DNA from: Dyadobacter beijingensis DSM 21582
GTDB lineage: Bacteria > Bacteroidota > Bacteroidia > Cytophagales > Spirosomataceae
Reading direction: 5' to 3'
NCBI RefSeq assembly: GCF_000382205.1
Contig: NZ_KB907790.1
Location: 310,001 to 374,000 of the forward strand
DNA length: 64,000 nt
How positions within the stretch are numbered: the first letter of the stretch is position 1; each line of letters starts with the position of its first letter. Positions 25,105 to 42,550 of the stretch are shown in pieces. Below the pieces are notes generated by a model. That model saw nothing but the letters and a program-made list of their open reading frames with translations. It did no database searches and had not been told where the DNA came from. Position numbers and translations under genes: made by a program.

Positions 25105-25548
25105 GTGGATACGTTAAGCTACAAAACCATCTCGGCGAACAAAAACACAGTAAACAAGGAGTGGATTGTTGTGGATGCTGAGAATGCAGTTCTAGGTCGT
25201 TTGGCCAGTGAAGTTGCGAAAATTATCAGAGGCAAACACAAAGCAAGCTACACTCCTCATGTGGATTGTGGAGATAACGTAATTGTTATCAACGCCGACA
25301 AAATCAAGTTGACAGGTAAGAAAATGACGGACAAAGTTTATGTTCGCCACACAGGTTACCCAGGAGGTCAACGCTTCCAGACTCCCCGTGAGTTGCTCGA
25401 AAAACACCCTGAGCGTGTGATCGAGAAAGCCGTAAAAGGTATGCTTCCAAAGAACCGTTTGGGACGTCGTTTATTTACAAACCTGTTTGTTTACGCTGCC
25501 GCAGAACACCCGCACAGCGCACAGCAACCAAAGCAAATCCAATTGTAA
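25105..25548 (+). CDS. rplM: 50S ribosomal protein L13
   Basis: L13 is an early-assembly large-subunit protein. The sequence contains [38 protein letters not shown] and the core [22 protein letters not shown] place the start at GTG 25105 ([15 protein letters not shown]), giving 147 residues as in other Bacteroidota. A TTG 30 nt upstream would add ten hydrophobic residues that look out of place on a ribosomal protein. The gene is followed by rpsI after 3 nt, the conserved L13-S9 pair. Confidence 0.96.
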
Positions 25549-25551
25549 TTC

Positions 25552-25938
25552 ATGGAAGTGATCAACACAATAGGTAGAAGAAAAACAGCTGTGGCACGTA
25601 TTTACATGGTGCCAGGCAAAGGAGATATCAAAGTAAACGGCCGCGATTACAAAGAATATTTTCCATTTGAAGTACACCAGATCGTTCTGCAACAGCCTTT
25701 CGCTACGATCTCAGGTGGAAATGGTTATGACATCAAAGTAAACGTAAGAGGCGGTGGAATTTCAGGCCAGGCGGAAGCAATCCGTATGGCGGTTTCACGC
25801 GCACTGGTTGAATACAATGCTGAGAACCGCGGACCATTGAAGAAAGAAGGATTCCTTACCCGCGACCCACGTATGGTTGAGCGTAAGAAATACGGACGCC
25901 GGAAAGCTCGCAGAAGATTCCAGTTCTCGAAACGTTAA
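25552..25938 (+). CDS. rpsI: 30S ribosomal protein S9
   Basis: S9 binds the 3' domain of 16S rRNA, and its C-terminal tail reaches the P-site tRNA. The 128 residues run from NTIGRRKTAVARIYMVPGKG through the conserved GGGISGQAEAIRMAVSRAL to the basic tail RRKARRRFQFSKR, all family-typical. It is co-transcribed with rplM (3-nt gap). Two nucleotides after its stop a phased repeat array begins, rather than a conventional terminator. Confidence 0.97.
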   Translation: MEVINTIGRRKTAVARIYMVPGKGDIKVNGRDYKEYFPFEVHQIVLQQPFATISGGNGYDIKVNVRGGGISGQAEAIRMAVSRALVEYNAENRGPLKKEGFLTRDPRMVERKKYGRRKARRRFQFSKR

Positions 25939-25940
25939 TA

Positions 25941-26085
25941 AATGGTCATGTGTGGTCAGAAATGGTCACGCAGTGGTCAGAAGAGTCAAGTGTAGTCAGG
26001 AGTGGTCATGAAGAGTCATTTATGTTTTTCTCAATTAAAACAACACATGACTATCAATGACAATACCTGACAACAAATGACAAAA
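25941..26085. repeat. Phased GTCA/TGAC repeat array 1 (rpsI-rpsB)
   Basis: Eight GTCA tetramers start at 25945, 25955, 25965, 25976, 25985, 25995, 26005 and 26015, mostly in the form TGGTCA or GAGTCA. After a 29-nt AT-rich gap, four TGAC tetramers start at 26048, 26058, 26068 and 26078. Spacing is almost exactly 10 bp throughout. The two halves are inverted relative to each other, so the RNA can fold back: for example GTCAGGAGTGGTCA at 25995 pairs imperfectly with TGACAATACCTGAC. The array begins directly after the rpsI stop. Confidence 0.9.
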
Positions 26086-26165
26086 AATTGTCCAGACGTC
26101 GCTTATCGTGCCCGATGCTTCGTGCTGCGTAACAAGTCTAAAAATATTTTTAATCAAATTTGGCA

Positions 26166-26984
26166 ATGGCACAAATAGAATATAAAGAACTATTGGATGC
26201 AGGTGTCCACTTTGGTCACCTTACCCGCAAGTGGGATCCCCGGATGGCTCCATATATCTTCATGGAGAAGAACGGTATCCACATCATTGACCTGAACAAA
26301 ACTTTGAGCTGCATCAATGAGGCTGAGGCTGCATTGAAACAGATCGTTCGTTCAGGACGTAAGATCATGTTTGTTGCTACTAAAAAACAAGCGCAGGAAA
26401 TCGTAACGGAAGAGGCAAAACGCCTTAAAATGCCTTACGTGACCGATCGCTGGTTGGGTGGTATGCTTACAAACTTCGGCACGATTCGCAAGTCTTTGAA
26501 AAAAATGCAGACTCTTGAGAAGATGCTCAAAGACGAATCCACGGTTAGCAATATTGCGAAAAGAGAACGCCTGATGCTTACACGTGAAAAGGAGAAACTG
26601 GAAAGAGTATTGGGTGGTGTAGCAGACCTTACTCGCCTTCCGGCAGCACTTTTCATCGTTGATGTAAAACGCGAGCACATTGCGGTAGCAGAAGCGAAAA
26701 GATTGAACATCCCTATTTTTGCGATCTGCGATACCAACTCAAACCCTGAATTGGTTGACTTCCCGATCCCTTCAAACGATGACGCTTACAAAGCGATCTC
26801 TTTGATTACCCTCGCGATCGGTAAGGCTATCGAAGAAGGTTTGATGGAACGCAAACAAGATAAGGACGATCAGCGCCTGGTAGAGGAAGAAGAAGCAAAA
26901 CGCGCAGCTGACAAAGGCGAAGAGGCAGCCCCTCGCGCCGAAGTAGCCGCAGAAGCTGAGGTTGCTGAATCCGACGAAGAGTAA
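26166..26984 (+). CDS. rpsB: 30S ribosomal protein S2
   Basis: S2 joins the small subunit late and helps recruit S1. The sequence MAQIEYKELLDAGVHFGHLTRKWDP, GRKIMFVATKKQAQEIV, RWLGGMLTNF and IPIFAICDTNSNPELVDFPIP are all signature regions. An upstream TTG (26160) would add two residues; ATG 26166 is preferred. The C-terminus carries a roughly 35-residue acidic, alanine-rich extension (EEEAKRAADKGEEAAPR onward) beyond the usual end, common in Bacteroidota. A hairpin terminator lies between it and tsf, so the classic rpsB-tsf pair may be only partly co-transcribed. Confidence 0.97.
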   Translation: MAQIEYKELLDAGVHFGHLTRKWDPRMAPYIFMEKNGIHIIDLNKTLSCINEAEAALKQIVRSGRKIMFVATKKQAQEIVTEEAKRLKMPYVTDRWLGGMLTNFGTIRKSLKKMQTLEKMLKDESTVSNIAKRERLMLTREKEKLERVLGGVADLTRLPAALFIVDVKREHIAVAEAKRLNIPIFAICDTNSNPELVDFPIPSNDDAYKAISLITLAIGKAIEEGLMERKQDKDDQRLVEEEEAKRAADKGEEAAPRAEVAAEAEVAESDEE

Positions 26985-42450: not shown

Positions 42451-42550
42451 TTGTCATGCATTGTCAGGAGAGGTCATTTGTTGTTTTAGTCAATTATACC
42501 TACTGAAAACCTGACCATTTCCTGACCACTTCCTGACTATTTCCTGACTT
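42451..42550. repeat. Phased GTCA/TGAC repeat array 3 (HNH-rpsA)
   Basis: GTCA occurs at 42453, 42463 and 42473 (10-bp steps), plus a fourth, displaced copy at 42489. After an AT-rich spacer, TGAC occurs at 42512, 42523, 42534 and 42545 (11-bp steps, unit TTTCCTGACTA-like). The halves are inverted, so the transcript could form an imperfect hairpin, for example GTCAGGAGAGGTCA against TGACCACTTCCTGAC. It begins 18 nt after the HNH stop codon. Confidence 0.88.

What the first reader, a model, noticed from the sequence alone, without database searches (positions are those of the whole stretch)
25941..26085. Helically phased GTCA/TGAC array between rpsI and rpsB
Eight GTCA tetramers at almost exactly 10-bp steps, then four TGAC tetramers at exact 10-bp steps, inverted around a short AT-rich centre. 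Ten base pairs is about one DNA turn, so every unit faces the same side of the helix; as RNA it folds into a long imperfect hairpin. Only the tetramer is constant and the six bases between vary, so it is not a simple microsatellite. It starts 2 nt after a ribosomal gene stop. Either a protein-binding platform or an RNA 3'-end structure would fit. I know of no named element with this layout.
Basis: seen in the sequence. Interest (0 to 1): 0.8.

Follow-up and report, generated by a model that had tools for sequence, protein, structure and literature searches.

The report
Inverted ten-base repeat arrays in Dyadobacter
The spot marks one of many scattered, fast-changing arrays of a ten-base repeat (GTCA plus six variable bases, usually in two mirrored arms) that sit just after genes in Dyadobacter bacteria; they look like a ten-base cousin of the seven-base repeats of cyanobacteria, and what they do is not yet known.

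Summary
The window's genome (a Dyadobacter) has 212 matches to GTCA-N6-GTCA-N6-GTCA and 0 to the reversed control. Across 48 Dyadobacter genomes the count runs from 0 to 836. Units follow GTCA-D-K-N-R-T-D at steps of 10 bp. Two-armed arrays face inward (64 against 4). They tend to lie about 20 nt after stop codons.

The variable bases of the two arms match no better within an array than between arrays. Unit order is not shared between loci. The mean step is 9.99, not 10.5, so long arrays leave one helix face. Two-armed arrays still fold far better than shuffled sequence (46 of 52), nearly as well with a foreign arm. Sister genomes show units gained and lost in place; the same slot can hold an unrelated inverted repeat or nothing.

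Best reading: a decamer relative, in kind, of STRR-type intergenic repeats, evolving in place at gene 3' ends, with two-armed copies able to form a register-free hairpin. That function is inferred; a neutral passenger or a DNA-binding array is not excluded.

The parts
25945..26018 (+). left arm: eight GTCA units
26019..26047 (.). 29-nt AT-rich centre, with an inner TTTT/AAAA-type partial palindrome
26048..26081 (-). right arm: four TGAC units (GTCA on the minus strand)
25552..25938 (+). rpsI (ribosomal protein S9), gene before the array
   Evidence: ORF; orthologs in 48 of 48 congeners
26090..26132 (+). conserved stretch GTCCAGAC...GCGTAA before rpsB, present beside filled and empty slots alike (leader of rpsB by inference)
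   Evidence: no Rfam match at gathering threshold
26166..26984 (+). rpsB (ribosomal protein S2), gene after the array
   Evidence: ORF
42453..42548 (.). second element of the family: three GTCA (10-bp steps) and four TGAC (11-bp steps)

Best explanation
The element is one member of a dispersed family of degenerate ten-base tandem repeats, usually in two inward-facing arms, that mostly occupies the space just after stop codons in Dyadobacter and occurs more thinly in other bacteria. SHOWN: the unit rule (GTCA-D-K-N-R-T-D), genome-wide abundance, inward polarity, the bias towards gene 3' ends, and unit gain and loss in place. SHOWN IN PART: the GTCA core changes more slowly than the six variable bases. 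INFERRED: two-armed copies act in the transcript. A G/U-rich arm with few C and an A/C-rich arm with few G pair poorly within themselves but pair with each other through GUCA/UGAC clamps in any register, so units can come and go on either arm without losing the hairpin. The hairpin would mark or protect mRNA 3' ends or slow RNA polymerase, in both directions between convergent genes. It works like, and in kind resembles, the 7-bp STRR repeats of cyanobacteria.
For: 212 matches against 0 in the genome, 0-836 in 48 congeners. Middle tetramer GTCA in 148 of 160 cases. 46 of 52 two-armed arrays fold with z below -2. Of 94 clusters outside predicted ORFs 65 are codirectional, 22 convergent and 7 divergent, against 236, 44 and 79 background gaps (divergent p 0.001, convergent p 0.009); in codirectional gaps the median distance after the upstream stop is 20 nt, and 26 of 31 asymmetric cases are nearer the stop (p 0.0002). 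The same slot holds other inverted repeats in relatives: AGTT arrays in 10 of 48 and a GC-rich hairpin repeat in 2 of 8 readable sister slots. Core substitutions 8/380 against 51/564 in the variable bases (p 7e-6). Foreign arms fold nearly as well as native ones, as a register-free hairpin would predict.
Against: The arms are not matched beyond the shared grammar (2.57 against 2.60 +/- 0.10 of 6); native arms are not significantly better than foreign ones (p 0.15). 31 of 100 clusters are one-armed, and only 4 of these 31 have two or more TGAC on the inward side. One-armed codirectional arrays show no strand preference (10, 10 and 1 unassigned). Pairing does not require the strict inward polarity. 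11 of 48 genomes lack anything at this slot and 11 of 48 have no match to the three-unit pattern at all, so it is dispensable. Core conservation rests partly on two distant pairs: nine sister pairs give 7/304 against 21/450, p 0.12. No terminator-like site at the window array.
Confidence: 0.4

Rival explanations
1. Neutral or selfish minisatellite: arrays expand, shrink and erode by slippage and recombination and persist only where they do no harm (after stops, away from promoters); GTCA is kept by the copying process, not by function.
For: Copy number 0-836 in one genus; units gained or lost in place, one by exactly 10 bp, between sisters; shorter or reordered relics in 11 of 12 orthologous comparisons in the D. 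fermentans clade (counted by eye); count rises with genome size (rho 0.46, p 0.0009).
Against: Position 10 is nearly saturated with A, G and T while each core base stays at 96-99%; core changes less than the variable bases; strict polarity.
Confidence: 0.3
2. Protein-binding platform on DNA: a protein binds each GTCA unit and spreads inward from both arms, for example as a roadblock or a nucleoid site.
For: Conserved core with free flanking bases; orientation towards the gene does not matter for one-armed arrays; strict inward polarity.
Against: Mean step 9.99, not 10.5, so long arrays drift off one helix face; the slot is shared with sequence-unrelated repeats; no candidate protein was found or sought systematically.
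Confidence: 0.2
3. Mobile element copied from place to place.
For: Dispersed, variable between species, filled and empty sites at one slot.
Against: Unit order is not shared between loci (1 shared unit pair against 4.0 +/- 1.8); orthologous sites mostly already hold relics; no correlation with Y1 transposase (rho 0.20, p 0.16) or reverse transcriptase counts (rho -0.06, p 0.68).
Confidence: 0.05

Closest known systems
Short tandemly repeated repetitive (STRR) sequences of filamentous cyanobacteria (PMC2670836 and PMC2408588, passages seen)
   Same: Degenerate short tandem repeats, intergenic, dispersed; one is described as able to form a hairpin near the 3' end of a gene; Nostoc PCC 7120 has ttgtcagttgtcagttgtca 44 times, i.e. 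a GTCA core; function unknown.
   Different: Usually 7-bp units there, 10-bp here; those passages describe no inward polarity rule, no core-plus-six-variable grammar and no 3'-end statistics.
TAACTGA intergenic direct repeats of Beggiatoaceae, cyanobacteria and some Bacteroidetes (PMC4679880, abstract and section 10 read)
   Same: Patchy distribution, short units, unit-sized indels between close strains; rc(TAACTGA) resembles the AGTT family seen here.
   Different: Exact heptamers, direct repeats (169 sets and one indirect in one genome), mostly just before start codons in Beggiatoaceae.
REP sequences and their RAYT (Y1) transposases (PMC3733652, listing only)
   Same: Dispersed palindromic intergenic repeats; placement after stop codons (recalled).
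   Different: REPs are 20-40 bp palindromes; here tandem decamers, and counts do not follow Y1 genes.

Membership tests
Cyanobacterial STRR | 7-bp repeat unit | tested here: not met
   285 of 342 steps are exactly 10 bp and none is 7 (arrays chosen by 9-11 bp steps); so not filed as STRR
Cyanobacterial STRR | degenerate tandem repeats dispersed between genes | tested here: met
   (3 of 97 placed clusters fall inside a predicted ORF)
Cyanobacterial STRR | GTCA-type core in some classes | tested here: met
   csR1.1 ttgtcagttgtcagttgtca in PMC2408588 (passage); a Nostoc-type contig L140 mixes 7- and 10-bp GTCA steps
REP/RAYT elements | copy number linked to a Y1 transposase | tested here: not met
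   Spearman 0.20, p 0.16 over 48 genomes
REP/RAYT elements | single 20-40 bp tagged palindrome | tested here: not met
   tandem decamers in two arms
Intrinsic terminator | G+C-rich hairpin followed by a T run | tested here: not met
   0 found at 25500-26700; window array only
Helically phased protein-binding array | step equal to the helical repeat so that units share a face | tested here: inconclusive
   mean step 9.99: near in-phase for short arrays, out of phase in arrays of 13-17 units
Helically phased protein-binding array | a protein that binds the unit | not testable with these tools
   needs binding experiments

The most novel reading that the evidence does not exclude
The polarity rule may be the clue. 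Sequence-unrelated families (GTCA decamers, AGTT heptamers) and distant taxa show the G/T-rich arm first and the A/C-rich arm second, read on either strand. That is the pattern left when two broken DNA ends are each extended at their 3' ends with G/T-rich repeats and then joined, as in telomere-to-telomere fusions. The arrays could be scars of an unknown bacterial enzyme that adds degenerate repeats to 3' DNA ends at breaks between genes. Against it: reverse transcriptase counts (PF00078) do not follow array counts.
Probability: 0.05. Interest if true: 0.92.

Novelty: new variant of a known kind. Interest (0 to 1): 0.55.

Why it matters
Degenerate short intergenic repeats have been noted in cyanobacteria and Beggiatoaceae without a known function. 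Dyadobacter offers one genus with 0 to 836 pattern matches per genome, close sister pairs, filled and empty versions of the same slot, and clear rules of polarity and placement, so the old question (RNA structure, binding site or junk) becomes directly testable. It also shows unrelated inverted repeats replacing one another in the same 3' slot of a ribosomal-protein operon.

Tried and rejected
Copy-paste mobile element: disfavoured by unit order and by relics at orthologous sites. Driven by Y1 transposases or reverse transcriptases: no correlation. Arms copied from each other: no residual matching. Rho-type site needing the C-rich arm on the sense strand: one-armed codirectional arrays give 10 GTCA, 10 TGAC and 1 unassigned, so no support; Rho itself was not tested. 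Intrinsic terminator: none at the window array. Rfam: only a tRNA reached the gathering score in the window. The tetramer scan missed the AGTT family, which is irregular in step; I saw it by eye and searched for it. A pattern for AGTT clusters in the eight stretches gave one true case, at the rpsI slot of G399, and one false-looking one. Paper searches by layout, host and repeat kind listed nothing closer than STRR and TAACTGA repeats; the library lacks preprints and most subscription papers, so this does not show absence.

Not used or dropped: (39 clusters) was superseded (100 clusters, 97 with both neighbours). In one search the pair L290/L300 gave no alignment and the display for L291/L301 missed the array. 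In one search one locus (L040) enters twice, and orthologs at the rpsI slot are included.

Full report
WHAT IS THERE. The array is as described: eight GTCA from 25945 and four TGAC from 26048 around a 29-nt AT-rich centre. It lies between rpsI, whose stop codon ends at 25938, and a conserved stretch (GTCCAGAC...) before rpsB. A second member lies at 42453-42548. The host is a Dyadobacter: one genome of the same genus has a contig of 7,587,604 bp, the chromosome length given for Dyadobacter sp. NIV53 in the abstract of PMC8567783 (search listing). I take G404 for D. fermentans from its length, by recall.

IT IS A LARGE FAMILY. GTCA-N6-GTCA-N6-GTCA occurs 212 times in the window's genome against 0 for the reversed pattern; an inverted two-arm pattern matches 25 times per strand against 0. 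In the genus 37 of 48 genomes match, with 0 to 836 matches each and control counts of 0 to 3. In a sample of 395 genomes of the phylum 61 match, most with one or a few hits, as the control also has; the three other sampled genomes of the same family have none, while G216, G294, G019, G353, G224 and G116 carry units of similar flavour. Some single records look like plain microsatellites (Acinetobacter, Mesorhizobium, Ignatzschineria); a Planctomycetota MAG contig and both Spirosoma show the two-arm form.

THE UNIT. Where both neighbours are GTCA, the middle tetramer is GTCA in 148 of 160 cases; position 9 is T in 95%, position 6 is G or T in 92-95%, position 10 is A, G or T about equally with 1-2% C. 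Of 342 distances between successive tetramers of one kind in 46 arrays, 285 are exactly 10, 19 are 11 and 14 are 9; the mean of the 322 between 8 and 11 is 9.99.

ARMS. Of 100 Dyadobacter clusters 64 are inward, 4 outward, 31 one-armed and 1 mixed (64 against 4 gives p 6e-15). Outside Dyadobacter 13 clusters are inward, none outward and 33 one-armed (46 clusters, several from one MAG). A second family with AGTT cores at 7-8 bp steps matches in 30 of 48 congeners, with low control counts; in its truncated listing I could pair 13 two-armed cases by eye, all inward. The variable bases of paired units agree in 2.57 of 6 positions, as between unrelated arrays (2.60 +/- 0.10; 46 arrays). Exchanging the right arm changes the mean energy from -50.9 to -48.2 kcal/mol, native lower in 29 of 52, p 0.15. 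Against dinucleotide shuffles 46 of 52 two-armed arrays have z below -2, mean -5.4. So a hairpin is possible, but it comes from the shared grammar and not from arms matched to each other.

PLACE. Of 97 placed clusters 65 lie between codirectional, 22 between convergent and 7 between divergent genes, and 3 inside a predicted ORF; background gaps of 60 bp or more are 236, 44 and 79 (divergent depletion p 0.001, convergent enrichment p 0.009). In codirectional gaps the median distance after the upstream stop is 20 nt and to the downstream start 73 nt; 26 of 31 asymmetric cases are nearer the stop, p 0.0002. Genes were called as longest ORFs, the loci were picked by the pattern, and some clusters are orthologs, so cases are not fully independent.

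HISTORY. At the rpsI-rpsB slot a script counts 22 genomes with GTCA arrays, 11 empty, 10 with AGTT arrays and 5 other, among them an eroded GTCA array in G423. In 200 kb of the D. fermentans clade four array loci were compared across four genomes: in 11 of 12 comparisons the other genome has a shorter or differently ordered array or relic at the site, in one it has none (counted by eye). Of ten slots fetched from the sisters G412 and G428 eight could be read: five keep the array with unit changes, one of them an exact 10-bp loss; two hold a GC-rich TTCGACT-type hairpin repeat in G428; in one, with flanks only 80-84% identical, G428 has no array. Within the window's genome unit order is not shared between loci (1 shared pair against 4.0 +/- 1.8; 60 runs, 228 units). 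Substitutions in 11 aligned pairs: core 8/380, variable bases 51/564 (p 7e-6), flanks, largely coding, 666/19023. Two more distant pairs, where units may be misaligned, carry much of this: nine sister pairs alone give 7/304 against 21/450 (p 0.12), and 3/272 against 20/402 (p 0.008) after dropping, post hoc, the pair with an inserted GC element.

READING. In kind this is a decamer relative of the STRR repeats of cyanobacteria (usually 7 bp, function unknown, sometimes hairpins near 3' ends; PMC2670836, passages; GTCAGTT type in Nostoc, PMC2408588, passages) and of TAACTGA repeats (PMC4679880, abstract and section 10). It fails the 7-bp criterion, so I do not file it as STRR. I favour a register-free hairpin at mRNA 3' ends (0.4) because of placement and because unrelated inverted repeats share the slot. 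A neutral passenger (0.3) and a DNA-binding array (0.2) stay open: one-armed arrays without strand preference (10, 10 and 1 unassigned) and the strict polarity speak against a purely RNA reading.

Noticed in passing
L311, L316, L317, L318, L321, L328, L330, L332, L334, L339; rpsI slots of G397, G420 (variant), G423, G424, G427: A GC-rich 16-mer GCGGTCCGCCGCGCGG (35 of 48 Dyadobacter, up to 12 copies) lies inside GTCA arrays in 10 of 30 loci printed, in 9 of the 10 directly followed by TCA, so that its last bases run into a GTCA.
   Followed up: partly
G408:C4:122221, G430:C20:26216, G430:C6:83091, G426:C2:4493158: The same 16-mer lies within about 600 bp of Y1 transposase (PF01797) matches at these four places, so it may be a REP-like partner of such a gene.
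   Followed up: no
L324, L327, L335: In three loci the flanks of the 16-mer look like tRNA sequence; ARAGORN finds an intact tRNA-Lys or tRNA-Val nearby but none spanning the 16-mer. A disrupted tRNA copy is possible.
   Followed up: partly
window 26090-26132: A conserved stretch GTCCAGAC...CTTATCGTGCCCGATG...GCTGCGTAA stands before rpsB in the 48 congeners whatever fills the slot; no Rfam match at gathering threshold. Possibly an S2 leader.
   Followed up: no
L303, L305 (G428); G415 array in L133 16529-16692: A GC-rich hairpin repeat of the TTCGACT...AGTCGAA kind stands in place of a GTCA array in G428 or in the centre of one in G415.
   Followed up: no
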